Source of the DNA: Chlorops oryzae | Taxonomy: Eukaryota; Arthropoda; Insecta; Diptera; Chloropidae | Direction: 5' to 3' | DNA length: 64,000 nt | Assembly (NCBI GenBank): GCA_020466095.1 | Contig: CM035809.1 | Coordinates: forward strand, 20,004,430 to 20,068,429 | Shown: one piece after another, positions 1,108-61,435 of the stretch | Numbering within the stretch: the stretch's first letter is position 1 | Layout of the letters: the number at the start of each line of letters is the position of its first letter | Translations under genes and position numbers: made by a program | The notes under the pieces: generated by a model | The model's input: only the letters and a program-made list of their open reading frames with translations | What the model was told of the DNA's origin: nothing | Databases searched by the model: none

Positions 1108-1628
1108 CAGAAACGGTTAACCGGCGGAAACGGTGGCCAAGCCAGGATTGACGGCCAGGAAGGTTTTGCTGTGTGTTTGGTGGGATTTGGCAGGGAATTA
1201 TCTACTATGAGCTGCTCCCATACGGCAAAACTCTTAACTCGGAACTCTACTGTCAACAATTGGACCGTCTGAAGGAAGCAATCGCCCATAAGCGGCCAGC
1301 TTTGGCCAATAGGAGAGGAATTGTGTTCCATCAGGACAACGCCAGGCCACACACATCGATAGTGACTCGCCAGAAGCTCCGGGAGTTTGGTTGGGAGGTT
1401 CTTCTGCATCCACCTTATAGTCCGGACCTGGCACCAAGTGATTACCATCTGTTCCTGTCCATGGCGAACAATTTTGCTGGTGAAACATTCGCTTCAAGAG
1501 AGGCTTCTGAAATTCGACTGTCTCAATTTTTTGCTAATAGGAACGAGGGCTTCTATGAGAGAGGCATAATGAAATTACCTTTAAAATGGCAACAAGTTAT
1601 CGAACAAAACGGCGCATATTTGACCTAA
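1108..1628 (+). pseudogene. mariner transposase, C-terminal remnant with frameshift
   Basis: Encodes the C-terminal half of a Tc1/mariner-superfamily transposase, which cuts and pastes DNA at TA sites. From 1173 a 151-residue reading frame contains HQDNARPHTS and YSPDLAPSDYHLF. The Asp of QDN and the last Asp of APSD are separated by 34 residues, the DD34D spacing of mariner. The WWD segment carrying the first catalytic Asp lies just upstream (about 1165-1180) in another frame, so one extra base near 1180 breaks the gene. The N-terminal DNA-binding half is missing and no terminal inverted repeat is visible. It sits exactly between two direct 1 kb repeats. A dead copy; the subfamily cannot be set with confidence. 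Confidence 0.93.
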
Positions 1629-14670: not shown

Positions 14671-15575
14671 GAAACATGAATGGAAAAATTTAGTTAATCC
14701 TAAGCAAAGTTCTCCCGAACGAAGAATGATAAAATATTTAGATATCCGTAAAAGATTTTCATAATTTCTCGTTCTTAACTCAAGTCAATCGCTAACGAAG
14801 GCCATATCACAATGAGATGCCTTGTCGCGGTAATATCACAACGCAATAGAAATGAAAGCAAGACATGATTTATATATGTATGTAGTATACTTTTGGTAGC
14901 ACGAAGCGTATACTACGTGAATATATTTCAGAGAAAGCAAACCAACCCCAAAGCGATGATAATCTCATACCCCTAACCTGCTTCAACATTTCAGTTATTG
15001 GGGTAGCAGTACCAGTGATAGTGATGGTATAGCCTATTTTCAGGCGTCGCAAAATGACGCTCAACGAAAGTGAAAGTTGAGAGCGAAAGCATTGCGAAAT
15101 TTCACTGCCCACGCGCATATTCGTTTTAAGTAGTGGCTTCACAGCGCACACAGAAAAGCACGACGGCATGAGTGAATGAACAACGATTGAAGTGTGAGTT
15201 AACGCCAAAAAATATGCTTTCAATAATGGGTTTTTTTGTGATTTGACTTTCATATATGAAGGTAAATAAATAGTATTTTTTCTGAATGTACGCGCAGACT
15301 ATTAACGAGTCTTTCAACGTGTTTCGAATTCATAAATATTTTCCTTGGGGGTGTGACGGCGTGTTAAAGGGAAAATTCATTTCCCCCAAGGTCGTTTGTT
15401 TTGCTTTTACCGAAAGAATTTCTGTGCAAGGGGCTTTTAAACTCGTATGAAAAGAAATTGTTATTAATAGGATTTGCTAATAATTATTAATAATTAAAAT
15501 AATAATAATTATTAATAATTATAATAATTATAATTATGCTTTGTTTATTATATTATGAAAGAAAGCAATATTTAC
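14671..15575. other. no supported gene
   Basis: Contains a small hairpin (GTAGTATAC / GTATACTAC, 14882-14917) and an (ATT)n-like AT microsatellite at about 15473-15537. Open frames on the minus strand here resemble nothing I know. Confidence 0.5.
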
Positions 15576-16620
15576 ATTGCATATTTTTTGGCTTCAAGGT
15601 TTCAAGGTTAAAAAGGACAAGAGGATAAAATTCCATTCGATATTCATGCAACCGGATATTATCATCTCACTGAAATGAAACTAATGCAGCATACTTTGCG
15701 GCTTTTTTGGCCGCATTTCAATTTCTCTTGATGCTTATTCTAGTAGTTTTTTGTTCTTCCTATATACGCTTGGCAGACGCCCAAGATTTTTTTTTATTAT
15801 TTTTAGTCTATTTGAAGAATTGAAAGTTTGAGGCTTTTTCTATAATAGTCTCATTGAACTGGAAAATGAAAAAATTAAAGCATACTTCAAGGTGTAAGAT
15901 ATTTTTATAAAATATTTGTAGTTCCGAGATAGTTTTATTACTTTTTGCGTATCAATTTAGAAAAATGCATTGAAATTGCTAGCCTCCCTTAAGATATGCT
16001 TCAATTTACTTAATGATACTTTTTAAAAGCTCTTTGAGTGAATTCGTTTCTTGGTTTCACTGAAAAGTCAATTAGGAAAAACGTGTTCTTTATTCCCCAG
16101 ATAAATAAGTTATTGGGTTTGAGGGATTACAGTTTTCGTGATTAGTGTTCACCATTTTGATTACATTTTTTTCCCCAAGAGAATGATTGCTTTGAGTGTT
16201 TTGTGATTAAGATTTACGTATTCAAAGAGTTTTTTTTTTTGTAATTATAACATAAAATATATAACAAAATAAAATAAATGATGAAAAGAATTTTTACTCC
16301 CAAAGATATGCTACATTTTTTAAATTTTTATAACTTTAATGATAGTAATGAAAGAACAAATCAAAAAATGGTCAAATAGTGGCACAAAAGTTCTTTATTA
16401 CACTGAATATTTTCCTCATACCGTAAATATGCTACATTTTTTTTTAATTTAATGAAAGAATCATGAAAGAAAAAAAAATGAAAATTATATAGAAATGGTC
16501 AAATAGTGGCACAAGCCCTTTATTAAACTTAATATCAGTCCTAAAAGTATGCCTTGTTTTCAAAATGGACAAGGCCAGCATCAAATAATCACGGTTCATT
16601 GCCCTAAGATATGCCTCCTT
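15576..16620. promoter_or_regulatory. cluster A of eight Su(Hw)-like insulator motifs
   Basis: Eight matches to nGCATAYYTTNNGG in about 1 kb. Plus strand: 15577 (TTGCATATTTTTTGGC), 15687 (CAGCATACTTTGCGGC), 15878 (AAGCATACTTCAAGGT). Minus strand: about 15983-16003 (AAGCATATCTTAAGGG), 16297-16316 (TAGCATATCTTTGGG), 16417-16436 (weaker, TAGCATATTTACGG), 16536-16556 (AGGCATACTTTTAGG), 16599-16618 (AGGCATATCTTAGGG). The core matches what is known of the Drosophila Su(Hw) site, a TGCATAYYY core followed by T-rich sequence and GG; the gypsy insulator also carries about a dozen clustered copies. Motif sequences are seen; binding and insulator function are inferred. Confidence 0.6.
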
Positions 16621-19200
16621 TTGTTGTATACATACAAATTACATGTAATTCACTCTCTATTTCGGCTGGAAAGACTTGAGCTTAACAGCTTATGAGAATA
16701 GCACGATTCTCGGGGTCTCTTATTAGCATCTTTTGTGCGTTGTGCATGAATAAAGCTGAAAAATTACGCTAATTACGTCATCTTTGACCAAAAATTAATA
16801 CCTAGAATTTTTGGCTTTGCACTCGAAAGTAAAAATTTTAGAATTTCCAAGTTTAGTTTAAGATTTCATTTGGTTTTTTTTTTTTATTATATAAAAACGT
16901 TGCCTTAAGTGTGCGATTAAATTGAGCTTGCAGCCGTCGGAATTTTCGACAGCTGTGTAAACTGGGCCAATATAATGGAATGCTATATACTATAATTATA
17001 GTAGGTACGAGTATATTATATATAGATAAGTATATTTCGTATGATAATCAATAATCTCGCGAGCAAAGAAAGTTGAATTCTTAAAGCCACTTGAATAAAT
17101 TTCGTCTTCTTTGTAAAGAAATATATTTCGGAGTAAAAAAAATTTCCCACACACACCCTCGAAAGCATCGCGCCTCCAACACATGAACACACACAATGAA
17201 ACACAAGTAGACTTAAGTTTGCGCATAGAATTGAGAGAGAGAGCGATTTTTGTTATTGCAATTTTCTCTTGCTTGCGTTAGTATTGGTGCGTTCGTTCTT
17301 AAGGCGTTCTTATAAGATGACATCAATGTTGTGCCACTGCCACCTTTCTTACACACTACAGAGAATGAGCGAGCGAGAGAGAATCTCTCACTTCTAATGG
17401 AGGAATTTTATATCACACCAGCACGTGCTGCTGCGGCATTTTTTTCTTCTCATTTTGCTGTTGTTTGTTTTTTTTTTTTGGCTGCTGCTTTCTCTCGCCG
17501 CCATTGCTAGGAGACATACCAAGAAGCTCGTTTGCTCGAGCGTGCAGTTGTAAACAAAGCGCGCACTCTAACGGATCATAGGCTTGCCGTCGTCGCGTGA
17601 ATGTGTTCTTCTAAACAAGTGCGCAATTAGTCAGTGAACAGCCAGGTATAGAACAGTGCTGTCGCGTTTGTACCTTTAAAGTAGCAAAATGCTTTTAAAA
17701 TGATCGTTTTTTATAAAATAAACGGAGTATATTAAAGAAAAAAGTAGTTTTTAAGCAATAGAAACTTGGAAAACTCGTCAACCAAGAAGACTTAAAAAAT
17801 GAATGAATGATATTTTGTATGAAAATTTTTATACTTTTTCACTTTGAAGCGAGTGCAATAGTTGTTGTTTTTTTTTGTGAATGGTAAAAACAGATAAACT
17901 TATGCGAATAAAAAATAAATAATTTACCGCACAAAGAAGCGGAAGAAGAAAAATTTACTTACATATTTACAACCAAATTAAAGTGCGTTAATAAAGGAGT
18001 AGTAAAGTAGTACGGCGGGACAAAAAGTAGTAAAAAAAATACTATAGTATCATTTCGACAGCACTCGGGACATTGTTAAAATAAAGAAATAAATTAAATT
18101 TAAAAAAAATAGAAAAATATTCAATTCAAATTAATTATAAATTGTTCTTTTTATTGGAAAAAATTTTTTTTATTTATTTTTTTCTATTTTTTCTAAATAA
18201 AAATCTTTTTTTTTCGCTTTGAGTGTACTCTCGAAAGTCCCTGAAACAGTGCATTTAACCTGAACTGACCTCCATATTATTAGCTAGGGACATTGTTAGA
18301 CGACAGACTTGCAACTTTTACATTTGTTGTTTTTATTGTGTTTTTCCTTTTTTTCTATCTTTTTTGCTCAGTCTTTTTTTGCAATTTTTTTTTTTTTGAA
18401 TTTTTTCTGAATTCATTTCTCGATTTGTGAAAATGTGAAATGTGCTGTTTTTGTGCGTTAAATGGATTTAAGATGTTTGGGTTTTTTGTTGTTGTTGTTG
18501 TTGTTCGTACAATGCATGCTGTTGGCGTTGCGCTGGTCGTTCATGCTCGGCTCGTTCGTTGCATTTGATAACGTATTTCCTGCTCAAACTAGCGTGTTTT
18601 ATTGTTGTTGTTGTTGGTGTTTGTTTTTTTTTTTCTCTCGTATATTGCTAAATTGGCAAATTGACATTTTTACGCTTTACGAAAAAACCTTGAGCTGGTC
18701 AGTGTTCTAAGCGAATAGTGCAATGAATTTTTTCAGTGCGAAATTTTTTTTTAATGCGATGAATGCATTTCGTGCATTGTTTGTTTGAAACGCGTGAGGA
18801 AAATGTGAAAATATTTTTTCTCAATTTTTTTTTTTTTTTTCATTTCTTCTTTCTGCTTTCTAGAGTCTATTATCGCTTGTAGATTGTATGAAAAATTGTT
18901 AGCGGAAATTTTATTCCTTCTCGATAATATTGATTTATTGTTCCTTTGAACCTCTTGAAGTGAATTCGAAAGCCAGTCTATCCTTCAAAGCCGTCCTTCA
19001 CTATCAAAGTCCAATGCTGCCTGGCTTACGTGACCTCCGACAACTGTTTGACTGCTTTCGGGTCGGGTCATTGGCAAAAGGCAATTTCGTTCGAAAAAGG
19101 AAATAGTTAGAAGTCAGTTTCAAGGATAATGGAATATAAGTACTTAAAAAAAAAACCTTCTACGTCGAACTTCACCACTTTTAACTCCTTTTTGTTGCAT
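16621..19200. other. intergenic, no coding exon recognised; possible promoter
   Basis: 17330-17660 is GC-richer and includes initiator-like TTAGTCAGTG near 17627, followed by a possible 5' splice site CAG/GTATAG at 17645. This could be a distal 5' untranslated exon of SNF4Agamma, but that is inference. Poly(T) runs are frequent. A Leu/Val/Phe-rich open frame at 18462-18710 is driven by GTT repeats and not credible. Confidence 0.35.
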
Positions 19201-19202
19201 TA

Positions 19203-19370
19203 GGGGTATTCACAAAGGCGTGTTAAAAACGTTGGAAAGTAGGAAAATCGAAAAATTGCGACTTCTTAAAAAAAAATTAAACTTTTTTTGTATCTTTCAC
19301 AACTTTTTAAGCAGATAAAATTTTCAGATTTTCCGACCTTACTATTTTCCGATGCCTTTGTGAATACCCC
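19203..19370. mobile_element. fold-back MITE (GGGGTATTCACAAAGG), copy 1
   Basis: 168 bp between TA sites, beginning GGGGTATTCACAAAGGCGT and ending in GCCTTTGTGAATACCCC. Long stretches inside the ends also pair. Same family at 19797 and 21772, which are in the opposite orientation. Non-coding. Confidence 0.85.
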
Positions 19371-19796
19371 TATTGATATGAATGAAGGGGAAAAAATGGT
19401 TGGGAATGACTCCTTTAAAATAGAGCAATAGTGCTGCCATACTTCTTTAATTTTCAGTTTCATAAATTAGGTATAAAAAGGAGGTAGAGGTCAATTTTGT
19501 GGAAAGGGGGGAAAAAGGTCCTTATAAGAAGGGAAATTTTATAACTTTGAAAGGGATGGTGCTTTGTTCCAGTTAAGATCAGCCCTTTAAACGTAGGAGT
19601 TTTTTTTACCATTCTCAGAGGCAGGCGGTGATGATGCGGTTAAACATTTGCAACCTGTCGCTTAAAAAATAATTAAAAGGGGCCAAAATTTTTCAAAATT
19701 GCTGTTGCGAGAGAGAAGAATGCCACATTTTTTTCATGATTTGTAGTATTCACTGTAGTATTTCAATGAAAATTCAAATTAATTCATCTCACAATA

Positions 19797-19959
19797 GGGG
19801 TATTCACAAAGGCGTCGGAAAATAGTAAAGTCGGAAATTCGGAAAATTTTATCTGCTTAAAAAGTTGTGGAAGACAAAAAAATTAAATTTTTTTAAGAAG
19901 TCGCAATTTTCCGATTTTCCGACTTTCCACCATTTTTAACACGCCTCTGTGAATACCCC
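19797..19959. mobile_element. fold-back MITE (GGGGTATTCACAAAGG), copy 2
   Basis: 163 bp. Left flank TA; right flank AA, so the duplication is damaged. Internal ATTTTATCTGCTTAAAAA and AAGTCGCAATTTTCCG are shared with the other copies. Confidence 0.85.
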
Positions 19960-20711
19960 AAATGAAAGAAAAAACTTGTTAAATCCCATAAAAAGTTGGA
20001 AACTTGCTACGAAGGGGTTAAATTTCGTGCATGTAAATGTTTTTTTGTAACGTAATTTAAAAAAAAAATGATTTAAAGCAATCATTAAAATTTTTGTTTA
20101 CACATAATTAATTGCATTTAAAATATTTAATTGGCTTACAAACGAGGTAGACATTAAATGCATTTAATAAGTTTCAAGGACAATAAAGTTTGCACGCTTA
20201 CAGGTTATTTTCGCTGTAAAAATTACAGTGAATGTCGCCATTTTGTTGTCAGTAATAAGTTAATTGTCAGGTATTTTACCCATATTATTGTTACAGGACT
20301 TCATTAAGGATGTCGTTGTCAGTTTAAGTTAGAATTGAGGGCTCTCGAATGCTTAAACTAAAGAGAATGGTGCCATAACAATGGGAAAATTAAAAATAAA
20401 TTGAAAAAAATGTTAAATTATCAAAAATGATCACTCACACAGAACACAGAGGACATTCGAAATCTTATCAAATCAGAAAAAAATCAATCGAAAAAAAAAA
20501 CTAAAATCACTAAAATCATTGAAATTGTTTGTTGCACTGTCCAATTACTAAGAATTTTTGGTCGAGCTACGCTCTGTCTTGTGTATAAAATCAGAGACTT
20601 CTGGAACTGTCTAGAAGATCTTCTCTCTCGTGTTTGTGTCATAAAATAAAGTCTGAACTTTGGAATCAAGACACGCCAATAAAGCTTTTTGACTCAATTC
20701 TTTTCTCAAAT
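19960..20711. other. no gene; possible decayed LTR-like promoter
   Basis: 20576-20692 has a TATA-like GTATAAAATCAGAG followed by two AATAAAG signals (20647, 20680), the order seen in an LTR. No paired LTR, primer site or clear ends were found, so this is only a possibility. Confidence 0.25.
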
Positions 20712-21339
20712 TGATTACGCCAGTCCGGTGTTTGCGCTAGGTTTCTTATAAAGTATATAAATGATTTATGCTAATTGGCAGATTATAGCGTGACAGTGGA
20801 GCCTCCTAAAAGAGGGTAAAAATAATTTTTTGCCGAGTCATTTAATGATTAGGGAAACAGAAAACATTTAAATTAAACTCCCAAAAGTATGCTTATATAT
20901 AAGAATAATTCTGATGTTGAGAAATCTCTTTATTCTTGAAGCTATGACTTTTTGAGCATGTCTTGAGCAAGGATTGCCGGAACAAAGGTTTGAAATGATC
21001 TGCATTGTATCTTTCAATATTCAATTGCATACCTTTAGGGGTTAAGTTGAAATTTTCTGTTGGCTTATTAGCAGGGCGAAAGAAAATATTTAAAGTCAAC
21101 ACCGAGATGTATGCTTTTAAATATTTCAAAACCAATTTTGTATAATTTTAAGCCTTCACCAATGATTTATAATTAAGGCTCTTAGAAGATCCACACAACT
21201 TCTTAAATCCTTGCTCAGGATGTTCTTAAATGGACAAAGCTACAAGAACGGAACAGATTTCTGACTATTGAAATTGTTCTTAATACATTTAAGCATACTT
21301 TTAGGTGCTCAATTAATATATTTTCTGTAGCCCTATTAA
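20712..21339. repeat. 620 bp repeat, copy 1, with four Su(Hw)-like motifs
   Basis: Starts TGATTACGCCAGTCCGG and recurs nearly intact at 23288-23910 in the same orientation. Carries four GCATAY...GG motifs: 20877-20896 minus (AAGCATACTTTTGGG), 21023-21043 plus (TTGCATACCTTTAGGGG), 21098-21118 minus (AAGCATACATCTCGG), 21288-21308 plus (AAGCATACTTTTAGGTG). No inverted ends, LTR features or coding sequence, so the unit is of unknown class. All four motifs are kept in both copies. Confidence 0.85.
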
Positions 21340-21771
21340 TATCAGTATTCAAGTAAATAATTTGATAAAAATCTAAAAAATATATAAAAAATATTCTTCT
21401 ATCTGGGGGACTTTTACCTAGTATTTACTGTATTTACTTTATAGATTTGGCCTTCTTTGTTGTTCAACTGCACACGCACGCACGATCGCAGCAGATACTG
21501 AGCGCCATCCTACAAAAGTGCGATAGTCCAAAGCTTATCAGCTTGCACATGCTTCAGCGAGAGTTTGCCTTTTTTTCTGCTCCTTTTATTTTTTCCATTA
21601 AATTATAAGTATTAATTTCATTTCTTCAATTACTCTTTTATCTTGTGAGTGTGTGAGTTGCACTTCATTCGGTTTCATTTTCATTAGATTAAAATTTAAA
21701 ATAATAATAAAAAAAAAAAAAAAAATTCACTATGAAAAGTTTCTCAAGAACTTTAAATTGTTGAGACATTA

Positions 21772-21937
21772 GGGGTATTCACAAAGGCGTCGCAAAATAG
21801 TAAAGTTGGAGAATCGGAAAATTTTATCTGCTTAAAAACTTGTGCAATATACAAAAAAAGTTTAAAATTTTTTAATAAGTCGCAATTTTCCGATTTTCCG
21901 ACTTTCCAACATTTTAACACGCCTTTGTGAATACCCC
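21772..21937. mobile_element. fold-back MITE (GGGGTATTCACAAAGG), copy 3
   Basis: 166 bp between clean TA duplications (21770-21771, 21938-21939); ends GGGGTATTCACAAAGGCGT and ACGCCTTTGTGAATACCCC. Closest to copy 2. Confidence 0.87.
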
Positions 21938-21939
21938 TA

Positions 21940-23287
21940 ATGTTTTGAAAAAATTTTTGCATCAAGAATTAATTTTCAGACCAATACAATTTCTGTGGTC
22001 ATGCGAAGAATTTTTTTTTATTTTTTTTTTTAAGTACTTCCATTATTTTTAGAGAAATTTAAATTGTTGGGCCAAAGTATAAAATTGTTGTCATTAAATT
22101 TTAATTTTTTTCAGTGTTATTGCCGGCACAATCGATTTTTTTTTAGGTTGGTAAGAATCTTCTCTTTAGAAATCGCATCAAAATTCCGATGTTGTTTGTT
22201 TTAAGAAACTATTTTCGGGGCAAAAACGCCATTGAATTGCTTAAAGTGAAAATGAAAAATGAAAAAAATTATTTTTCTTTCGATTCGAAAATACAAACGT
22301 CCTGCTTACGTAAATCAACATCGTTTGAATGCCAAAGAAATTATAAAATTTTTAATCTGCCGCAAAAGTTTTTATTTGGCAAAAATGAAATAAAAAGTAA
22401 ATGTATCAACTTTAAAAAAAAAAAAATAAAAATAATAATAATTCCGCTAGCACTGTCAAAAATCATAAATCCTTGACCTATTTAATAATAAACCCCCCTA
22501 CAAGTCATTTCTTTCGCAACGCATAGACCTCCGTTCAGGAAATTCCTCTACGTCTTTCGTCGCCTATATTGTATATTTGTAGTTATGTAGCAATAAAACT
22601 CAATTCTACTCTACACCTTTGAATACGAAAATCAAAACAGAAAAAAAGAGCAAAAAAAGACAAGAAATTTAAATTAAAAATAGTAAACAAACGCTTAATA
22701 AATATTAACTTTTGAACGTTATCACAAAATGATTCTTAGTGCGAAGATAAGGCGAAGCTTTTTGCGGGCAAGCAGAAGAGAGAGTGGAGAGGAGTTTTTA
22801 ATCAACAGCAGCAGCAAAAGTTACTTCATTTTGCCTTAAAGTGTTTTTCTGTTTCAAAATATTTTATTGTCGTTTTTCAATTTTCTCTTTTGTGCTCTGT
22901 AACTCGTGATAAAGAAGAAAAAGTCATAAGAAATTTAATTTTGTGATCGATTTAGATTGAGTCGAAGCGAAACGCTCCAACAATAACCGATAAGAATTGT
23001 TTATAGAGAGTGGTGATTTTTCATTAATTGAAAATAATTTTTTTTAGTAATTAAAAGTTTAATTAGAATTAAGAAATTGAAAGAAAAATTCATGTTTTAA
23101 AATTAAAAATTAATTTTCTAACAATTTTCCACTATTTCTCTACTAGAAGTGAGCTTTTTAAACCCTTAGAATTTCTTCAAGGCTTCCTATGAGAGTTAAC
23201 AGATCACTGTTAGGACAGTATAGAGCTTAACAGATTACTGTTGAGACACTGTTAAGGTGCCTCTTATGCTATTACTTGTAATTATTG
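21940..23287. other. AT-rich, no supported gene
   Basis: An open frame at 22189-22476 is Lys/Phe/Ile-rich low-complexity sequence without a known domain. 23200-23265 contains AACAGATCACTGTTAG / AACAGATTACTGTTGAG, a short local duplication. Confidence 0.5.
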
Positions 23288-23910
23288 TGATTACGCCAGT
23301 CCGGTGTTTGCGCTAGGTTTCTTATAAAGTATATAAATGATTTATGCTAATTGGCAGATTATAGCGAGACAGTGAGCCTCCTAAAAGTGGGCAAATAAAT
23401 TATTTGCAGAGTCATTTAATGATTAGGAAACAGAAAAGATTTAAATTAAACTCCCAAAAGTATGCTTATATATAAGAATAATTCTGATGTTGAGAAATCT
23501 CTTTATTCTTGAAGCTACGTCTTTTTGAGCATGTCTTGAGCGAGGATTGCCGGAACAAAGGATTGAAATGATCTGCATTGTATGTTTCAATATTCAATTG
23601 CATACCTTTAGGGGTTAAGTTGAAATTTTCTGTTGGCTTATTAGCAGGGCGAAAGAAAATATTTAAACTGAACACCTAGATGTATGCTTTTGAATAGTTT
23701 AAAACAACTTTATATAATTATAAGTTTTTACCAATGATTTATATTTAAGGCTCTTAGAAGATTCACACAACTTCTTAAATCCTTGCTCAGGATGTTCTTA
23801 AATGGACAAAGCTACAAGAACGAACAGATCTCTGACTATTGAAATTGTTCTTAATATATATAAGCATACCTTTAGGTGCTCAATTTATATATTTTCTGTT
23901 GCTCCATTGA
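23288..23910. repeat. 620 bp repeat, copy 2, with four Su(Hw)-like motifs
   Basis: Copy of 20712-21339. Motifs at 23451-23471 minus (AAGCATACTTTTGGG), 23595-23615 plus (TTGCATACCTTTAGGGG), 23670-23690 minus (AAGCATACATCTAGG), 23860-23880 plus (AAGCATACCTTTAGGTG). Order, orientation and spacing match copy 1. Bases around the motifs have diverged slightly more than the motif cores. Confidence 0.85.
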
Positions 23911-24649
23911 TTAATGTAAAGTCGGTAAAATGAGGACATTTCATAGAAAATTCAATCATTTTTTTTTTAACTTATTTCAATAAAGTCAAGATTTCTATAT
24001 TTTCAATAAATTAAATTTCATTTCTGACGATAAGCGATTGCTCGTGCCTACCTCCCCTCCCACACAATACAAAATAAAGAAAAAAATATCATTGTTCTCT
24101 AAAGACCGAAAGAAAGCTTAACAAATATTTCAAGAGCACTTCTCTCTTGTTGTTCATGAATTGAGATGTGCGACGAGATAAACGTGCATGTACATACGTA
24201 TCTGCTTTAACATACATATTTATATGCATATACATATGCATGAATATATAAACGTTAAATCAGCGTATGCTAATGACAATTTATTGGATATAAGAACGAT
24301 TAAAATGCAGTGTCTAGCAGCGAGAACGCCCACAAGGCGAGACGAAATCTGAACGCATTGTGTATCTCGTGTGGTCTAAGGTGACCACATGTGTGGAAAT
24401 AATTATCTCAGAATTGATGTTCATTTTTTTAAAATTATATTTAGGAAATTTTTTAATGACAACGGCAGTGTAAAGGGTTCCATTTGAGGACCTAAAAGTA
24501 TCCATTTTCTTTTTTGAAAAAATTTAAAAAAAATTTTGTGGAGTTGATGGATCTTTTTAAAGTCATTTTTAAGGTCCTTTAAAAAAATAAAAAATTTATT
24601 TAAAAAAAAAATTATTAAATTTTAGATTAAAATCCCTTTTGTTCTATTC
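23911..24649. other. no supported gene
   Basis: AT-rich; CATA/TATG-rich simple sequence around 24185-24250. Confidence 0.5.
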
Positions 24650-24658
24650 ACTATAAAC

Positions 24659-24898
24659 AGGGCTCGGATTTTATAGACTTTTATAAATTTAAAGCAAACT
24701 TTATGGGGCAAAAACTTCTTACCAGCACTTTGCGAATAAGTTAAGCGAAGTTGAACTTCAAATCGCTTTTTTAATTACAAAAAAATTAATATTGAAGTTA
24801 AAAATCGATTTGAATCCTGACTTTAGGTGAGTTGAACAAAATTTGTGCTCCATAAAGTATGCTTTAAAATTATAAAAGTCAACAAAATCCGAGCCCTA
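24659..24898. mobile_element. MITE with long inverted ends, Mutator-like
   Basis: About 240 bp with long imperfect inverted arms (about 55-60 bp each), outermost AGGGCTCGGATTTT. Flanked by a 9 bp repeat ACTATAAAC (24650-24658 and 24899-24907). Long arms with a 9 bp duplication fit non-autonomous Mutator-like elements. The right arm contains AAGCATACTTTATGG, one more Su(Hw)-like match (24846-24866 minus), while the left arm has a one-base variant (GCAAAC). Confidence 0.75.
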
Positions 24899-25206
24899 AC
24901 TATAAACGAAATATCGCATTTAAGTATTTGAAGTGATTTTTGGTTTAAAATTTAATCGTAAAATTCCCTCAAAATTGGGAAATTCCCGCAAGAAAGCATC
25001 ACTCACACATTTAAAACGATAGAGCAAGCTAATTCCAGATTTCCACACACAAATTTCTCTTTCGAAATGTTTAAGTTATGTGATGTGATTCGATGAGACG
25101 AAGAGGAATTTCTCCTCTTCCTCTTACCCTTCCCGCCTACATTGTCGATTTTTTTTAGAAGTAAAATTTCTCTGTAGAAAGTAGGTATAATGGGATGTGT
25201 CTCGGA

Positions 25207-26514
25207 CAGGCGCGTATCCAGAAAAATATTTCGGGGGGGGTTTTAAGAAAAAATATTTTAAGCTTTGTTTACATTAATTTTTCTTGAAGAAGAAGACATA
25301 GAATCGAGGACCTCGTCGCACGTTATTTCAATGTCTCGGTGAACGTTTAAAAGCGCAAGTCCATTTAATCGTTCTTCGCCCGTTTTGTTTCGAAGGTATG
25401 TTTTTTAATCTTCTCAAGGAGGAAAACGACCGTTCACTTGATGCGACCGAAATTGGAAGGGTTGCGCAAATTTTTAACAGGCGGTATATACACGGATATA
25501 AGCTTTTATCGCAGTAATTTAGGCTGTCGATAAAAGTAGTTGGCCGGTTCAATGAGACCTCTTACACAAGACAATTACTGACCGTCATGACACAAGAAAA
25601 CAAAATAGCGACACATCAGCCCGACGAAACAAATATAAACCAGAGAGTCGTCGTTGTTGTTTTGCATGTTAAATCGACTTTTCATTTTTTGATGCGAATT
25701 TTACATTTATTTGAAAATTAAGTTACCCGATTTTTATTTGAATGTAAACAGAAATGTTTGAAGAAAAATAGAAAAATTCATTTCGTTTTTATTAAGAACC
25801 TTTTCATTCATAATTTTGCATTCAAAGTGTCGCTTGTAGGAAATGTCACTCTAATAGAATGTAACGCTAATAGCGAATAAAAGTTAAAATTTCTGACGAT
25901 AATTGACTAGTGTAAAAAGCCTCATTCAGGAAGCAAAACCATATTTAGTAATTGGTCTGTTCCTATACATGAAACTGCCCAAAACTGTCCAATTTTTATA
26001 CAGTTTTCAACAAATTGGCCAGTCTTATGCAGTACGGAAACAGACCAGTTATCGAAAAATTTAACGTTTCTTGGTTTCACAAAGTCAATAATAGTCCTAA
26101 AATTGTTATTTTTGTTCGCTATTAGAGCTAAACCCGTGTTTTCTTGTAGGAAGAGGCACGAAATGGTCTACTGAGCATGTGAACCCACAAAATTCTCAAT
26201 TTTCTCTATATTTTCGCATAGTGCTCGCTCAGAAAGTATGATCAAATGTACAAGTCAACTATTGACTAGTGTTAAAAGTCTCAAACCAATGTTTTGGGAG
26301 CCACTAAAGCACTCGATGCGTCGATGTAATTTTATGAAACGTGAATTTTAAGAAATAAGCGAATTTTTAAACTTAAATTTATGTAATTGCACTTATAAAA
26401 AAATTTACATTGAGTCCATAATAAAATAAAGTTAAAACGTTTTTTTTTAATACAACGTAAAATTATTTCGGGGGGGGTTTGGACCCCCAAAACCACCCCC
26501 TGGATACGCGCCTG
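25207..26514 (-). mobile_element. decayed hAT transposon with 8 bp target duplication
   Basis: 1308 bp with perfect 15 bp inverted ends CAGGCGCGTATCCAG and identical 8 bp flanks GTCTCGGA (25199-25206, 26515-26522). G-runs (TTTCGGGGGGGG) near both ends are in direct, not inverted, orientation. A C-terminal transposase fragment is on the minus strand at the left end; most of the gene is deleted. Solo remnants of similar termini occur at 9056, 9295 and about 59655. Confidence 0.93.
25258..25555 (-). pseudogene. hAT transposase C-terminal dimerisation domain fragment
   Basis: Reading from 25555 down, the frame encodes a hAT C-terminal dimerisation motif, with LPISVASSERSFSSLRRLK as its hallmark. 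This is the ZMYM1/P52rIPK-like branch of hAT proteins. After the A6 run (plus-strand T run 25401-25406) the natural continuation, including LNGLALLNVHRDIEI and ending at 25258, is in another frame, so a one-base insertion breaks it. The N-terminal zinc finger and catalytic core are absent. Non-functional. Confidence 0.9.
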
Positions 26515-26548
26515 GTCTCGGAAAATAATTCAAAAATACCCTCTACTT

Positions 26549-26568
26549 TTGCCTTGAAGTATGCAATA
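26549..26568 (-). promoter_or_regulatory. single Su(Hw)-like motif
   Basis: Minus strand TTGCATACTTCAAGGC, a near-ideal match to the motif clustered at 15.6-23.9 kb. The last of the series before the first SNF4Agamma coding exon. Confidence 0.5.
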
Positions 26569-26600
26569 TTTTATTTTTTTAACGATTTTATATCAATTTA

Positions 26601-26816
26601 GACGGCATCTGTGCCGTAGTTGGTTGAGATGCCAACTAACGAAGCGCGAGGATCTGGGTTCAACTCCCAGCTGAGGTCGTTGATGTTTGTGTAATTTTTT
26701 CTGTTTCCGTTTTTCTTTGTTTCGTCATTATTCGTGGTATCTCAACGGGTCCATGGGAGGTCTAAGTGTGTCACCCTTGGTGGCAGCCAAACTAACCTAA
26801 CTTAACCTATCCTAAT
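26601..26816 (+). mobile_element. tRNA-derived SINE
   Basis: A tRNA-like head with A-box-like TGCCGTAGTTGGTTGAG (about 26612-26628) and a near-perfect B box GGGTTCAACTCC (about 26657-26668). A non-tRNA body of about 130 bp follows and it ends in an AACCTAAC-type tail (26787-26816). ATATCA(A)TTT before and ATATCATTTT after may be the target duplication. Transcribed by RNA polymerase III if active. Confidence 0.75.
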
Positions 26817-27638
26817 ATCATTTTCATCGCCTGGTCACCCTTAGATCTTAACAATTTCTATATCAAGTGCATCTATTGATCGAAGTAGAAGAAAAAAAAA
26901 ATCGAACTGCAACAATATAAACGAGGCGAAGTTTTTTATTTTATTTTTTTTTTTAATTTTTATCTCCCTCTCTTTTTTGCGATCACATTCAACACTTCTC
27001 AAACGTAATTTGCACTAAAATTCGTACTGTCTGCAACTTTGGCCTATTTTCAGTTCATTCAACTGACAATCCGTTGTCAACATTGATCATCAAAAGCCTA
27101 CAACGGCGGAAAAAACAAAATAAAAGCAACAACAGCAATTACAATCGAATTGCAACAAAAAACAAAACCAAAACAAAAAAGAACAAAGAACAAAGACAAA
27201 ATAAAAATTATTTTTTTATTAAAATTGAAATAATCCAAAAAGGCAATAAATAATAAAAAGAGCAGCAAAAAAAAATTGCAATCGAATTGCAATCGTGAAG
27301 AGAACGTGTTTGAGTGACTAAAACCAAATGAGAAGACGAAGAGAAGAGCGCGAAATTGTGCGTAATTGACAAAAAAACACACACACAAAAACCAAAAATT
27401 ATTCTAAAAACGCAGTGTTGCATTTGAATGAGCAAATAAAAAACCAACGAAAATGTGACTTTTTTCGCTCAAAATTAGAAAAACTAATTTATTTCACAAA
27501 AAAAAAAAAAAACTGAAATTTAAAATCAATGACAAAAGAGTGAATAAAATCTTTTACTTATAAAATAAATACAAAAAAACAATAGTAGAAAAAAAAATTA
27601 ATAAAAATATTAAATCTTAATATAAAAACCTTCGCAAA
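26817..27638 (+). other. probable 5' untranslated region upstream of first SNF4Agamma coding exon
   Basis: No open coding sequence. Long A-rich tracts with CAA/AAAC repeats from 27110 to 27638 are typical of fly 5' leaders. Transcription start not determined. Confidence 0.35.
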
Positions 27639-34820: not shown

Positions 34821-37800
34821 AAATGTACATTCGAAAATCTCTATAAAGAATTTATCTCTATAGCGAATCTTCTCGAGGCTTTTTCGCTACATTTCTAATG
34901 CCAATTTTTCTCCTTATAACGAATTCTCCCTGTAACAAATTATTTTTCCGTTTCCTCGAAATTCGTTATAGAGAGTTTCGACTGTATTCAAAATAATATT
35001 TCTAAAAAATAACTGACATATGTACTTATTTTGACTTAAGTCTGAAGCCGGGATCCCACTATCTGCGCAATGGGGCGATTTTTACCCCAATCACGCGGCG
35101 ATAGTGTAAACGAAATTTTTGGACTCTGATGCTGGCAATTGTGATCGTCATGAACGATTTTTATCGCAATTTTATTGTTCCCCGATATCTTTTTGACAAT
35201 ATGCGACAATAATGTGTGAGTCTCACCAGCATTTTGGAAATTGTTGAAATTTGTGCCGATCTTCTAACCCTATAAAAAGCCGCCCCAGATTGTGCTATTT
35301 TGCGAAGATAGTGAGATCCCAGCTGTACAATTTTTTATTTACCTTCTTTATTTAATCTATTTCGATATACTATTGCAAACAATTTTTTTTTTTTTTTTTA
35401 CTTAAAGTATCAAATACATGATCTGCCATCAATCACATGTTCTGATCGCAGCCGCAAAAAATTCTTCAAAACCGCATAAGATCTCACCTCGTCTCGGTGT
35501 CAAATTCTTTCATTTTCCTAATAAATGAAATAAGGAATCGAAACGGCGATAATTTATTCCCGAAACATGAACTTTTTTCCAAACAAATTCTCTCTCACTA
35601 ACTTCTTAGCCACATCGCGTGTTCACTTTTCTATCTCCTGAGTAGTTTTTCAAAAAAAACTCAAATCATTCAGTCATTTCACTCAATTCGTTTTTGACGT
35701 TTGTTTACAAGCAATGTTTTTTATTGGTGTTCTTGTTGTTGCACAATTCTAGCACAATCGAGTAATAATCTCTTTAGCCGAAAATAATGGAAAAATATTC
35801 TTAAATCACGCTAGCAAAAAAGACAAAAAAAAATGTTTTTAAAAAATTTTTCTCAATGATTTTTGAATTAATTTTCAATTCGAATAAATCGTTCGTTGGT
35901 TTTTTATAAACATATGAAATTAATATTCATTCGATTCCATTTGTTCAACGATCGGTCTTTAATGTTTTATTTTTATATTCTCAATTCGTTTAAAATTTAA
36001 TTGCAAATTTTCTAAATAAACTAGAGAAAATAAAAATCTCATCAATTATAACTCAATTCCCTTCGAATTAATTATACAGAACATATGGATCTTTGGACTT
36101 GGTTCCTTATTTTCTATTCATTTAATTCTATTTTTTATTTTATTTTTTATTCAATTTCTATCCGAGTGCCTGGCTTCGCATTTGAATAGGTCTTCGGGCG
36201 TTCCTAACAAATGTACCTACGCTCATTCATACATATATTTTTGTCTTGTTTGTCCATAGTTTCCATACAAGTGGTGTGTATGTATCATGAAATTGTTTAT
36301 TGTCTTTAATTATTCAATTTAGCATGTAAATTCTCGAGTTTAATGTTTTAAATTATTTTTGTATTTTGTTGGAACGTTTCTGGCTGAGATTTATCGGACG
36401 TAATTTGAGAGAGTTTTAAGTGTGAATTTACTTCCGAAGCCATTCGGAATACCTACAGTCATAGATTCGTCAGAGGGCTTTATTTATCAACCAATTCACA
36501 CTTTTTTCTAGCGATTTCCATTTAGTGTCTGCCAGATAGCAATAGTAGGAGTGGAGGATTTTTTTGTTATTCTCTGATATATTTAGATTTTTTTTTTAAT
36601 GTCAATTTTAAGATTTTTCTTCTGATTTTGGCTAGTCATAGCCGCCCGTTTCTGTCATAATTATTTTTATTAATTAAGCGAATATGTAAAAAGTATTTTA
36701 GGTTTTTATACCCAGCGTAAGCGGGGTATATTAGTTTTGTGCAAATCTTGTAACAGGGAGAATTAAGCTCCGAGATATAGAAAAATATATATAGAAATGA
36801 TCAGGATCAAAAACTGAATCGATTTAGACATGTCCGTCTGTCCGTCTGTCCGTCTGTCCGTCCGTCCGTCCGTCCGTCTGTCCGTCTGTCCGTCTGTCCG
36901 TCCGTCCGTGGTCGGATCTCCTCCGAAACGGCTCTACCAATCATGTCGAAATTTGGCACACATGTATATCGGGGTCCGAGTATGATCCTAAGTAAAAATG
37001 GGAGACATTCGCCCACTGCCACGCCCACAAATTAATTTATTAAGTTTTCAGTAAAATGCTTGTAACTTGCGAACCACTCAACACATTTAATTGATATTTG
37101 GTGTGCTGGTAAGCTACGAAAAGGGACATTTCCTGGCAAAAAATGGACGCCGCCCTCCTCGAGCCACGCCCACAAATAAACCCAAAAATAAGGGCTTATC
37201 GTAACTTGTGAAAAAAAAGGCGTAGAAGCTTCAAATTCGCAGCATAGGTTGACCAAGGCAAATGAAAGGTGTAGGAACAAAAATTTATGTATCCCGCCCA
37301 CTGCCACGCCCACAAATAAGGAAATTTCGTAACTTCCGAAGTAAAAGGCGTAGAAGCTTCAAATTCGCAACATAGGTTCACCAAGGCGAATCAAACGTGT
37401 AGAAAAAAATTTTTTGTGGCCCGCCCACTGCCACGCCCACAAATGACGATTTTTCGTAACTTCCGAAGTAAAAGGCGTAGAAGCTTCGAATTCGCAACAT
37501 AGGTTCACCAAGGCGAATGAAAGGTGTAGGAAAAAATTTTATGTGGCCCGCCCACTGCCACGCCCACAAATAAAAGTTTTTCGTAACTTCCGAAGTAAAA
37601 GGCGTAGAAGCTCCAAATTCGCAACATAGGTTCACCAAGGCGAATGAAAGGTGTAGGGAAAAAATGTATGTGGCCCGCCCACTGCCACGCCCATAAATGA
37701 AGATTTTTCGTAACTTCCGAAGTAAAAGGCGTAGAAGCTTCAAATTCGCAACATAGGTTCATCAAGGGGAATGAAAGGTGTAGGAAAATATTTTATGTGG

Positions 37801-40800
37801 CCCACCCACTGCCACGCCCACAAATAGAGAAGCAAAACATATTGCGCTCATAATGTTGGGACGCTGGGTATTTCAAAGTCGGGCTTGACCGACTTTAGCT
37901 TTCTTACTTGTTTCTTCTGATTTCGGGTAAAAATTTTCAACTTTTCATTAACAAAACGGTATCAAGGAGCGCTAAGATAATATTAGGTTGTGGGAAGGTT
38001 TGTTTTTCCTTCATTTCAATCAAACAATTTTCAGAAAATTCGTGGTACTGACTTGCGAGATATGTTCCAGAAATGGTAAAAAAAAGAGTAAAAAATTGTT
38101 AATTGTTTGAGATTTTGGCTATTTGTATCTCTTATATGGAATATTTGTGGGTCAGTCAATACTACAGTTATTTTCTCCATGCCTAGGGCTAATACTTTGT
38201 TAAAGAGAGGAAGATGAAATATTAGACACTTTAAGAGATATCGCTATAAATAAGTGTGCAACTTAATTCTCGGCCAGACTTTTTGAAATCGATTTAAAAT
38301 TTACCCGTAGCGAATCTAGAAAAACTAAATATTGGGATTTGTCACATTTGTAAAGCATTTTCAGATTAGGTTTATCGGGCTGGTCTGTAAGACCGAGCAT
38401 AGACCCTATGGGTCCCTAGCTTTGCCAGTGAATGTACAAGTGATTTTCAGGAAAAGCAGTAAAAATTTTTCTTTTACGTGTTTCATCGTGCTATCATGAC
38501 AATTACATGGCTAATTTTGTCAATTTATTCCCTAAAAGCAGCCAGATCTAGCGGGAAATGAGCTTTATGAACAGAAGGTATCAAAAGAGCGACTGTGGTT
38601 CAAATTACTGTCGATTAGTTTGAAATCCAATGATATGGATTGAAGAAAGCTGAATTGTTTTATTTTTCATGTTGGATATTTAGCGGAATAGAAAAAGAAA
38701 CTAATAGCTTAGCGATCCTCCTATCTCTTTGAAATATACCTTTCAATTTTTTCGAAACAATTAACTTATATTTAATAAAATTATTGGCTAACTTAAAGAC
38801 TTTATTTTTCCATTCCAGTTGCCTGTAGCTGATCCGTTCCTAGAGAAAGTTAACTTGTCGGATTTCGGTAAGTTTGATAATTTTCTTACATTTTAAAAAA
38901 AATATATATAAAAATCAAAAATACTGTATCCACAAAAAAGCCATAAGAAAAAACCAACGAACATAATTTTATGATATTATAAAAGATATCCAAAACAGAA
39001 ACAATCATATCAACATATTTTTGCGTTGACGGGTCTAATAACTTATGACAAGCAGCGAACATTAAACATAAATTAAGAAATTATCAACCAAAAAAAAAAA
39101 AAATATATAAAAAAAAATAAATAAATAAAAACCGAAGAAGACAGACGGAAAATGAATTTCTATTAAAAGTTCGTGGCGTAAAGTTAATCCAAAAAGAAAG
39201 AAAATAAAATGCTGCACCCGCAAATTGGGCAAAAAATAAATCCCTCGTCAAATTTATACGTCAAAGTTGTGGGCGTGGGAATCTAGAAGCCAAAAATTAA
39301 AAATCGAATTAAAAATTTTTGAGAGTGGTTTCAGTGATTCGCTGTTTGAGGACTCATGGTTCTTTCTTCGAATGTTAAATATTATTTTATTTTCTATTAA
39401 TTTGAATTTTTAAAAAATATTTTTATTTTATTTTACTTTTTTATAAAATTATTTTTATTTAAAAATTTTAAAAAGTTAAACAAAATATCTTCTTTTTTTT
39501 TTGTCGTGAGAATTTCCTTGTCATTTTCGTTTTCACCAAAAACTTTGAAGCCATCAATAATCCCAGTGCCAAACCGGCAAGGAATTCGCATTCATTATTT
39601 TAACTTTTTTCGGCTTTTCATAAAAATAGATTTTTGAAGAAGCTCTTTAGATGACAAAATTGTTGAAGTGCGGAAGAATTATTATGAAATCTGAAATGAG
39701 TCATTCAACTTGGCTAATCATTCAATTATCAAGCCTTGTGAGACATCGATTTGAAGCCATTTATAATTCACTTTTCGTATTGACTAGAAGGTCTTTATTT
39801 TCTCCAGGTATAAATGATAGATTTCCTTATTCCTTAAAGAGAGATAACTGAGCTTCTTCATGCAGTTCCAGTTCCTTTATTTTTTTTTTTATAGATTCGT
39901 AGTCAAATGGCACAAAAAAGGTCTACTTTAGTTCTGAAGCAGGTCCTCCTTGTTTTCCTCCGACTTTTTCGCCTTAGGCTCACAGCTTATAGATAGTTCC
40001 TACGACCAATTGAAATACCTCATTAAATAAAGTTCTTCCTTCAGAGCTACTTTTGGGTTCAATATTTGGATCCAAATCGCAGGGCAAACGCATAAAATCA
40101 ATTTTGGAGCGGATTCAGACATTATTAAATTATATAACGTGATTATTTTCCGTTTTTTCTTTTATGGATCTTCCAATTTCGGAGAGGGAAGCACCTCTGC
40201 GTATGCCCTTGCCAAACCATGATGGACTAAACAAGGTCCTTCCTCTTCTTCTTATTATTCGTCTTCGTCTTTCTAGGGCCTTATATACAAAAACCGGTCC
40301 AATTGTCTTGAGATACATAGGCTTCGAATTCTTTCTTTTAAGGGCATCGCCTTCACTTAATCCCACAGCTGATAGGTAGGTCCTTCAGCTAATTTCCAAG
40401 TACTTCTCTCTTCTCATTTTGGCAATGAATCACAGCCAACTTGATGATTGAGACCACCTACCGCCGGATTCTAGCAACCATTTCTAGAGCCTTTTACCCC
40501 CTTTTTTTTCTCCCCTATTACAATCGCCTTCATTTTATATTCACAAAATTCTTCTAATGTCTATTTGAAAGCCGCATTGATCGATCGATTTGCACTTTAC
40601 CATTAGAGCAAAGAATTAATCTCTTTAAAGCACAAAACATGAATAAATTTTCTCTTGAAATAAATGGAAGAAAAAAATCCCCACTGAGCGAGCTTTTTTT
40701 GTGTAAACATTTTTCCTCTCGATTTTCCTCATTCAGCTTCATAGGGACGTGCCTCAGTTAAATTTGAAAAACGACGATTTTTCACAAATTTTCATTTGTT

Positions 40801-59913: not shown

Positions 59914-61435
59914 AACACCATCAATACCATCATCACCAACCTCACCACCACCATCATCACCAACCTCACCACCACCATCATCACTATCATCAACACCATC
60001 ATCACCAACATCACCATCAACACCACCATCACCATAATCACTAACCTCACCACCACCATCATCAGCATCAACACCATCATTTCCATTATCACCATTATCA
60101 CCATCAACACCACCATCACCACCACCATCAACACCATCATCACCACCATCACCATAATCACCAACCTCACCACCACCATCATCACTATCATCACCATCAT
60201 ATCATCACCATCAACACCATAATCTCCATCATCACCAACATCACCATCATCACCATCAACACCATCAACACCATCAACACCATCAACACCATCAACACCA
60301 TCATCACCATCAACACCACCATCACCAACCTCACCACCACCATCATCACTATCATCACTATCATCACCATCATATCATCACCATCAACACCATAATCTCC
60401 ATCATCACCAACATCACCATCATCACCATCAACACCATCAACACCATCAACACCATCAACACCATCATCACCACTCAACACCACCATCACCAACCTCACC
60501 ACCACCATTTATCACCATCAACACCATCATCTCCATAATCACCAACCTCACCACCACCATCATCACTATCATCACCATCATCATCATCACCATCAACACC
60601 ATCATCACTATCATCAACATCATCACTATCATCACCATCAACACCATAATCTCCATCATCACCAACATCACCATCATCACCATCAACACCATCAACACCA
60701 TCATCACCATCATCACACACCACCATCACCATCACACTCACCAACATCACACATCATCACCATCAACACCATATCACCATCATCACCATCATCACCATCA
60801 TCACCATCAATCACCAACTCACCACCATCCATCACCATACCTCACATCATCTATACTACATCACTATCATCACCATCAACACCATATCATCCATCATACA
60901 CCAACATCACCATCATCACCATCAATCACCAACTCACACCACCATCATCACATCACTATCAACACCATCACATCACCATCACCTCACCATACCATCACCA
61001 ACCATCACCACATCCACCATCATCACCATCAACACCATCATCACCATCAACACCATCATCTCCATTATCACCAACATCACCATCAACACCATCATCACCA
61101 TCAACACCATCATCACTATCATCACCATCATCTCAATCATCACCATCATCACCAACCCCACCATCATCATCACCAACCTTACCATCATCATCATCACCGT
61201 CATCATCATCATCAACACCATTATCACCATGATCGTCACCACTATCATCACCATCATCACCAACCTCACCATTATCATCATCACCATCATCTCCATCATC
61301 ACTATCAACATCATCAACAACATCAACACCATCAAAATCATCATCACCATCAGAATCATCATCACCATCAAGAACATCAAAACCATTATCACCAACATCA
61401 CCATCATCATCATCATCATCACCACCATCATCACC
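59914..61435. repeat. 1.5 kb ATC/CAC-type trinucleotide array
   Basis: Almost pure mixture of ATC, ACC and AAC triplets (CACCATCATCACC, CACCAACCTCACC), with higher-order duplications of 100-250 bp. TTATCACCATCAACACC-type phrases return many times. Frame slips cluster around 60725-60995. The Met/Val-rich, Thr/Ile-rich and Asp/Gly-rich frames on both strands are products of the repeat, not genes. Confidence 0.95.

What the first reader, a model, noticed from the sequence alone, without database searches (positions are those of the whole stretch)
15576..26568. Array of about 18 Su(Hw)-like insulator motifs upstream of the AMPK gamma gene
The same motif, nGCATAYYTTNNGG, occurs about 18 times between 15.6 and 26.6 kb, on both strands, and I found no equally good match in the other 53 kb. 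Eight sites lie in 1.04 kb (15577-16618), four in each copy of a 620 bp repeat, one in a MITE arm and one alone at 26549. The core GCATAY and a GG near position 14 are nearly fixed although flanks differ, which suggests selection or a shared binding protein. The motif matches the known Drosophila Su(Hw) site, and the gypsy insulator works through a similar cluster. This could be a strong endogenous boundary separating the gene-poor left flank from SNF4Agamma.
Basis: partly seen in the sequence, partly recalled or inferred. Interest (0 to 1): 0.88.

Follow-up and report, generated by a model that had tools for sequence, protein, structure and literature searches.

The report
Su(Hw)-type insulator sites spread by transposons
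In this fly genome, sequences that match the binding site of the insulator protein Su(Hw) are very common, many of them carried by small mobile elements, and one unusual cluster of them in single-copy DNA lies near the AMPK gamma gene.

Summary
The motif array is real and far above chance: 14 exact GCATAYYTTNNGG in 64 kb, 0.13 expected. A matrix from 15 published D. melanogaster in vivo Su(Hw) sites picks out the same region, and this genome encodes a Su(Hw) orthologue with mostly similar finger helices, so Su(Hw) is the likely binder. But the array is two things. Seven of the 14 exact matches lie in repeats: a hAT-type MITE with a site in each terminal inverted repeat, and a duplicated 629-bp block made of a second TIR-like unit. 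Genome-wide there are 14,923 exact matches against 506 for the reversed pattern; 3,765 are the MITE's variant. The other seven lie in a 1.4-kb cluster (15,201-16,617); 15,540-16,660 finds only itself in the genome, and no coding or family-2 remnant was seen there. So about half of the 'array of 18' is repeat-delivered; the left cluster remains a fair candidate for an endogenous multi-site Su(Hw) element. Binding, insulation and boundary function are inferred, not shown. The wider surprise is MITEs that seem to have seeded thousands of Su(Hw)-type sites.

The parts
15201..15220 (-). Su(Hw)-type site, cluster 1 (14.9 bits; exact core match)
15576..15595 (+). Su(Hw)-type site, cluster 1 (15.7 bits; exact core match)
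15686..15705 (+). Su(Hw)-type site, cluster 1 (17.8 bits; exact core match)
15877..15896 (+). Su(Hw)-type site, cluster 1 (10.7 bits; one core mismatch)
15983..16002 (-). weak site, cluster 1 (4.3 bits; exact core match)
16295..16314 (-). Su(Hw)-type site, cluster 1 (14.9 bits; exact core match)
16416..16435 (-). weak site, cluster 1 (6.9 bits)
16536..16555 (-). site, cluster 1 (9.3 bits; exact core match)
16598..16617 (-). weak site, cluster 1 (7.3 bits; exact core match)
16306..16535 (.). diverged tandem duplication inside cluster 1 (16306-16410 / 16427-16535, 72% identical)
20712..21340 (.). 629-bp repeat, copy 1, read as two tandem family-2 TIR-like elements; sites at 20876(-), 21024(+), 21098(-), 21290(+)
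23288..23911 (.). 629-bp repeat, copy 2 (93.6% identical); sites at 23449(-), 23597(+), 23671(-), 23861(+), and a further matrix hit at 23376(-), 15.8 bits
24658..24898 (.). hAT-type MITE (family 1), 8-bp target duplication ACTATAAA; member of a high-copy family
24691..24710 (+). Su(Hw)-type site in left TIR (15.1 bits; core is GCAAAC in this copy, GCATAC in most other copies aligned)
24846..24865 (-). Su(Hw)-type site in right TIR (16.6 bits; exact core match)
24487..24506 (-). isolated weak site (9.6 bits)
26548..26567 (-). isolated site (11.8 bits) just outside a decayed hAT element (25207-26514)

Best explanation
The sites are recognition sequences for the fly's own Su(Hw) protein. They reached this locus in two ways. 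(1) An AT-rich 1.4-kb cluster (15,201-16,617; five sites above 10 bits, four below), mostly single-copy DNA and partly enlarged by tandem duplication, which by likeness to the gypsy array would bind several Su(Hw) molecules and, through Su(Hw) partners, act as an insulator or repressive anchor. It ends about 11 kb before the ORF at 27,621, which I take, unverified, for an early SNF4Agamma exon. (2) Ten further sites brought by repeats: a hAT-type MITE with a site in each TIR, and two copies of a 629-bp block of a second TIR-like unit with four sites each (plus an eleventh, seen by matrix only, at 23,376). Shown: the motif excess, the matrix match, the repeat structure, the lack of other copies of 15,540-16,660, the genome-wide excess, the Su(Hw) gene. 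Inferred: occupancy, insulation, any effect on SNF4Agamma.
For: Matrix from 15 in vivo D. melanogaster sites (PMC2374998 Table 1, seen): 12 sites >=14 bits in 11.4 kb against 0.17-0.34 in Markov sequence; 0 of 200 column-permuted matrices reach the observed counts. Array sites score 9.3-19.1, three weak cluster-1 sites 4.3-7.3; fly sites 12.7-27.4 leave-one-out. Su(Hw) orthologue at C1:28.384 Mb; the best named hits are 'suppressor of hairy wing' at 61-63% over the whole 567-residue query; zinc-finger block 286 of 391 residues identical to the D. sechellia sequence. 15,540-16,660 finds only itself in 442 Mb (the tool skips simple repeats and very common words); 7 exact cores in 1.41 kb against 0.048 at the genome rate. 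MITE: 2,391 first-look candidates, 40 scored; 29 of 32 aligned copies keep GCATAY in both arms, a biased sample; 17 of 18 copies tested have 8-bp target duplications with at most one mismatch.
Against: No binding, chromatin or reporter data. Sites cluster genome-wide (13 gaps under 500 bp among the 100 forward-strand C1 places listed, 1.8 expected), so the odds for cluster 1 are overstated; L045 carries 10 sites >=9 bits in 3 kb, at least seven of them in repeats. Four of nine cluster-1 sites score below 10 bits, below every fly site used. Fingers 11 and 12 of this Su(Hw) differ strongly from Drosophila, and single differences at three other fingers fall on positions that usually touch bases. 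In D. melanogaster endogenous Su(Hw) sites are mostly single (40 of 41 fragments, PMC2374998), and 1A-2 was reported not to be an insulator at its own place (PMC2493044 passage). No relatives were held, so conservation of cluster 1 was not tested. Whether it is intergenic or intronic is unknown.
Confidence: 0.62

Rival explanations
1. Passive hitch-hiking: the sites may bind Su(Hw), but the array has no locus-level function. Repeats carrying the motif pile up in such DNA and cluster 1 is an old, decaying by-product.
For: Half the exact sites are in repeats; motif-bearing repeats pile up elsewhere, as in L022, L045, L047; cluster 1 holds weak sites and a duplication.
Against: 15,540-16,660 has no other copy; cluster 1 has no family-2 unit (best E 0.63) and no Pfam domain; 7 exact cores in 1.4 kb among diverged flanks is hard to get passively.
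Confidence: 0.33
2. In the MITEs the motif is a transposase-binding element of the TIR, and its likeness to Su(Hw) sites is incidental.
For: In family 1 the motif lies in the TIR, 36 bp from the end, in 29 of 32 aligned copies on the left and 31 of 32 on the right, a biased sample.
Against: A second TIR-like unit with unrelated ends carries the motif pointing the other way; at least three more repeat units carry it; cluster 1, outside any repeat recognised here, carries it too; GCCTACTTTTNGG, another Su(Hw) variant, is also enriched (245 against 41 reversed, though 40 of 100 listed are packed at C1:91-96 Mb). Composition-matched sequence reaches the best score of family-1 copies in 0 of 150 and of a family-2 copy in L045 in 2 of 150.
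Confidence: 0.12
3. Cluster 1 is the relic of a gypsy-like retrotransposon leader carrying a Su(Hw) array.
For: Multi-site and AT-rich (72%), like the gypsy array as described in PMC2374998 and PMC7168160 (passages).
Against: No Pfam retroelement domain at E 0.01 in six frames of 15,001-27,000; no other copy of 15,540-16,660; site starts 62-375 bp apart, on both strands, against 12 sites in 340 bp.
Confidence: 0.05
4. Chance matches in AT-rich DNA.
For: None of weight.
Against: 0 of 100 shuffles; 30-fold genome-wide excess over the reversed pattern.
Confidence: 0.01

Closest known systems
[quoted passage not shown] 2007, PMC2374998; passages seen)
   Same: Same ~20-bp consensus with GC[A/C]TACTTTT and GG; this genome has an orthologue of the protein.
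   Different: Drosophila sites are mostly single; here one 1.4-kb stretch holds nine, four of them weak, and many others lie in MITEs.
gypsy retrotransposon insulator (12 Su(Hw) sites in ~340-350 bp; PMC2374998 and PMC7168160 passages)
   Same: Several Su(Hw) sites in one AT-rich stretch; Su(Hw) sites carried by a mobile element.
   Different: Here the carriers are DNA-transposon MITE ends, and cluster 1 is in no recognised element; sites are farther apart and on both strands.
ISX element dispersing sites of the dosage compensation complex in Drosophila (PMC4384637; start of abstract in search listing only)
   Same: A mobile element spreads binding sites for a chromatin factor.
   Different: 77 sites on a new X there; here another factor, hAT-type MITEs, and thousands of motif matches; function untested.
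hAT MITEs (general features recalled)
   Same: ~240 bp, TIR beginning CAGGGCTCGG, 8-bp target duplications.
   Different: A Su(Hw)-type site in each arm; not reported in the passages I saw.

Membership tests
Su(Hw) binding site | Match to the in vivo consensus beyond the core | tested here: met
   16 sites >=10 bits in the region, 12 >=14, repeats counted; for single columns. The first matrix had two of 15 rows in the wrong orientation; one search is the corrected one.
Su(Hw) binding site | Cognate protein with the same DNA-reading fingers in this species | tested here: met
   Of 12 C2H2 windows found in the D. sechellia protein, the first is cut off in the query; of the other 11 seven-residue helix windows 2 are identical, 5 differ by one residue, 1 by two, 1 by three, and the last two by seven and five. 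Met for most fingers, not for the last two.
Su(Hw) binding site | Occupancy by Su(Hw) | not testable with these tools
   Needs ChIP or CUT&RUN.
gypsy-type Su(Hw) insulator | Several sites in a few hundred bp | tested here: inconclusive
   Nine sites, four of them below 10 bits, in 1.42 kb; looser than 12 in 340 bp.
gypsy-type Su(Hw) insulator | Lies in a gypsy-like element | tested here: not met
Insulator / domain boundary | Enhancer blocking or Hi-C domain edge | not testable with these tools
   No such data.
hAT MITE (24658-24898) | TIRs, 8-bp target duplication, many copies, no coding | tested here: met
629-bp block as a mobile element | Dispersed copies with TIRs and target duplications | tested here: inconclusive
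   TIR-like units recur in L001, L010, L022, L024, L045, L047 (in the HMM's own building set) and in L029 (new); the whole-block genome search did not complete; the second copy may be a local duplication.

The most novel reading that the evidence does not exclude
Several unrelated miniature DNA transposons of this fly have each taken up a Su(Hw) site, in two families within their terminal repeats, and have seeded thousands of Su(Hw) sites through the genome, because the bound insulator complex favours the element (for instance by breaking piRNA-cluster transcription or keeping its surroundings open); the host's insulator map has thereby been rewritten by MITEs, and cluster 1 near SNF4Agamma is a domesticated or independently grown hub within it.
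Probability: 0.27. Interest if true: 0.85.

Novelty: new variant of a known kind. Interest (0 to 1): 0.58.

Why it matters
Su(Hw) sites in a mobile element are a textbook case through the gypsy retrotransposon. Here small DNA transposons appear to carry them on a genome-wide scale, which would let one ask directly whether transposons rewire insulator maps in insects, and whether insulator sites help elements escape silencing: Su(Hw) sites break piRNA-cluster integrity in Drosophila and are rarer there (one per 45 kb against one per 14 kb genome-wide; PMC6471301 passages). It also gives a concrete candidate for an endogenous multi-site Su(Hw) element, which the Drosophila survey did not find to be usual (PMC2374998 passages).

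Tried and rejected
Chance: rejected. Retroelement leader for cluster 1: disfavoured. Family-2 origin of cluster 1: no credible unit. Rfam scan of the window: 0 matches. Sigma-type promoter scan not run (bacterial model). Constraint on the motif inside the MITE: of 32 aligned copies 20 are or closely resemble the window copy and 7 came through the motif; of the 5 diverged ones that did not, 3 keep both sites, 1 only the right one, 1 neither, so no selection is claimed. Other insulator motifs (recalled strings): GAGAGAG is denser at 16.6-18.0 kb (2.9 per kb against 0.8), one CTCF-like core there, nothing notable in cluster 1. One search used three site positions one base off (15984, 16417, 16599); their right scores (4.3, 6.9, 7.3) are in the same output. 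Wanted but did not complete: whole-genome search of the 629-bp block, a paired-site pattern, a GCATACYTTTRGG count.
Full report
1. Is it there? The literal motif GCATAYYTTNNGG occurs 14 times in the window, 0.13 expected from dinucleotide shuffles; with up to one mismatch 21 against 3.6. All exact matches lie between 15,205 and 24,862.

2. Is it the Su(Hw) site? To avoid testing the motif on the sequence it came from, I built a 20-column matrix from 15 of the 20 in vivo D. melanogaster fragments in Table 1 of Adryan et al. 2007 (PMC2374998, passages seen; five rows dropped, see Tried and rejected). In one search two rows were wrongly oriented; one search is the corrected run and the one used. 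Sites >=14 bits: 12 in 15,201-26,600 (11.4 kb) against 0.17-0.34 in Markov sequence (four in cluster 1, six in the 629-bp blocks, two in the MITE); 3 in the other 52.6 kb against 0.8-0.9. None of 200 column-permuted matrices reaches the inside counts. Leave-one-out scores of the fly sites run from 12.7 to 27.4; the best window sites reach 19.1.

3. Is there a Su(Hw) here to bind it? The window belongs to an unnamed 442-Mb genome. A recalled piece of Drosophila Su(Hw) finds two neighbouring exon pieces at C1:28.384 Mb, 82% and 67% identical, E 3.5e-26 and 2.5e-21; the next hit has E 1.5e-10. The 2.2 kb fetched (L048) reads on through further fingers to the C-terminal end. The joined 567 residues match proteins named 'suppressor of hairy wing' over the whole length at 61-63% in blow flies and three tephritids, 58% in a fourth, 58-61% in Drosophila and 46-47% in hover flies (best 120 listed), so the species is most likely a schizophoran fly without a close named relative in that list (inference). 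Against the D. sechellia protein the finger block is 286 of 391 identical. Of 12 C2H2 windows found there, the first is cut off in my query; of the other 11 helix windows two are identical, five differ by one residue (three of these at positions -1 or 6, which usually touch bases), one by two, one by three, and the last two by seven and five. So most fingers are kept, the last two are not. The C-terminal end is kept in outline (LDMLVDG.TLKKFGWP here, IDMLVDPPILKKYGWP there). PMC5094011 (passages) reports Su(Hw) in all major arthropod lineages that it investigated.

4. How special is the locus? Genome-wide there are 14,923 exact matches; the reversed pattern gives 506. The single variant GCATACTTTATGG accounts for 3,765 (control 8); of the 100 places listed, 58 form 29 convergent pairs 138-187 bp apart, as the two MITE arms would. 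GCCTACTTTTNGG, whose GCCTAC core is seen in 4 of the 15 fly sites, is enriched less: 245 against 41, and 40 of the 100 listed are packed into C1:91-96 Mb. In 16 regularly placed background stretches of 10 kb (of 20 asked; four did not exist), 9 exact matches and 19 sites >=14 bits were found, 6 and 10 of them in one stretch, L022. The window's 14 compare with 2.16 at the genome rate.

5. The repeat part. The element at 24,658-24,898 has target duplication ACTATAAA and belongs to a family with 2,391 first-look candidates, 40 of them scored; apart from itself the scored full matches listed are 92-96% identical. Target duplications of 8 bp with at most one mismatch were seen in 17 of 18 copies tested, as expected of hAT elements. 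Of 32 aligned copies, 29 keep GCATAY in both arms; the window copy has lost it in the left arm. The sample is biased, and of the five diverged copies not fetched through the motif only three keep both. The 629-bp repeat (20,712-21,340 and 23,288-23,911, 93.6%) is itself built of units ending in about ATATTTTCTGTTGCCC, with the motif just inside and pointing outward. Such units recur in L001, L010, L022, L024, L045 and L047, which went into the HMM, and in L029, which did not. At least three further repeat units carry a site (L010/L026/L045; L007/L045/L046; L006/L026). Three other MITE copies in the region (19,189; 19,791; 21,766) carry no site >=9 bits, so not every repeat does. Composition-matched sequence reaches the observed best score in 0 of 150 trials for three family-1 copies and the window's two family-2 stretches, in 2 of 150 for the L045 copy, and in 13 and 76 of 150 for two control MITEs.

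6. The single-copy part. The stretch 15,540-16,660 has one hit in the genome, itself (it leaves out the site at 15,201, and the tool skips very common words). Cluster 1 has nine sites from 15,201 to 16,617 with scores 14.9, 15.7, 17.8, 10.7, 4.3, 14.9, 6.9, 9.3, 7.3 bits, 72% AT, a diverged tandem duplication of ~105-110 bp with three sites at its ends, no credible family-2 unit, and no Pfam domain: over six frames of 15,001-27,000 the one hit, a hAT dimerisation remnant, lies at about 25,391-25,513. Seven exact cores in 1.41 kb compare with 0.048 at the genome rate; as sites are clustered genome-wide this is not a true P value. After 15,201 the three left sites point right and the five right ones point left.

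7. How it most likely works. Su(Hw) binds; several bound molecules recruit partners (CP190 and Mod(mdg4) in the gypsy complex, PMC2374998 passage) and insulate or repress. All steps after the presence of site and protein are inferred. The ORF at 27,621 as an early exon is my guess, 11 kb from cluster 1. A GAGA-rich stretch near 17.2-17.4 kb may be a promoter (weak). Whether cluster 1 lies upstream of the gene or in a first intron is unknown.

8. Known or new? Su(Hw) sites in retrotransposons are known, and Idefix and ZAM have insulators (PMC7168160 passages). I searched for 'miniature inverted-repeat', 'MITEs' or 'terminal inverted repeat' with 'suppressor of hairy' (12 of 311 papers listed, looser terms; 8 papers; 4 papers). 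Of these I opened only PMC3169594 and PMC7168160, and PMC6471301 and PMC2493044 for other reasons, all by passages; none of the passages reports Su(Hw) sites in MITEs. The library lacks most subscription papers, so this is no proof of novelty. ISX dispersing 77 sites is the nearest parallel (PMC4384637, abstract start in listing only). A selfish benefit is conceivable, since Su(Hw) sites break piRNA-cluster integrity (PMC6471301), but nothing here tests it.

Noticed in passing
window 25207-26514: Decayed hAT element with TIR CAGGCGCGTATCCAG, target duplication GTCTCGGA and a hAT dimerisation-domain remnant at about 25391-25513.
   Followed up: partly
window 19189-19386, 19791-19965, 21766-21943: Three copies of another ~180-200 bp palindromic MITE (ends AGGGGTATTCACAAAGGCG) without a Su(Hw)-type site; a useful negative control.
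   Followed up: partly
genome C1 about 91.0-96.0 Mb: 40 of 100 listed GCCTACTTTTNGG matches packed in 5 Mb: perhaps a satellite or pericentromeric repeat carrying the C-variant of the Su(Hw) core.
   Followed up: no
L042:1158: A site scoring 27.4 bits, as high as the best Drosophila site (leave-one-out), with flanks shared by no other site in hand.
   Followed up: no
L029:1113-2184: Six family-2 TIR-like units (E below 0.001) within about 1.1 kb, an array of motif-bearing units.
   Followed up: no
window 37181-37830 and 52617-53144: Tandem arrays of 127-bp (5.1 copies) and 106-bp (5.0 copies) units.
   Followed up: no
window 59916-61435: 1.5-kb tandem repeat of a 9-bp CACCATCAT-type unit, left of an AMP-binding (fatty-acid transporter-like) gene.
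   Followed up: no
window 1152-1625: Transposase_1 (mariner-type) fragment.
   Followed up: no
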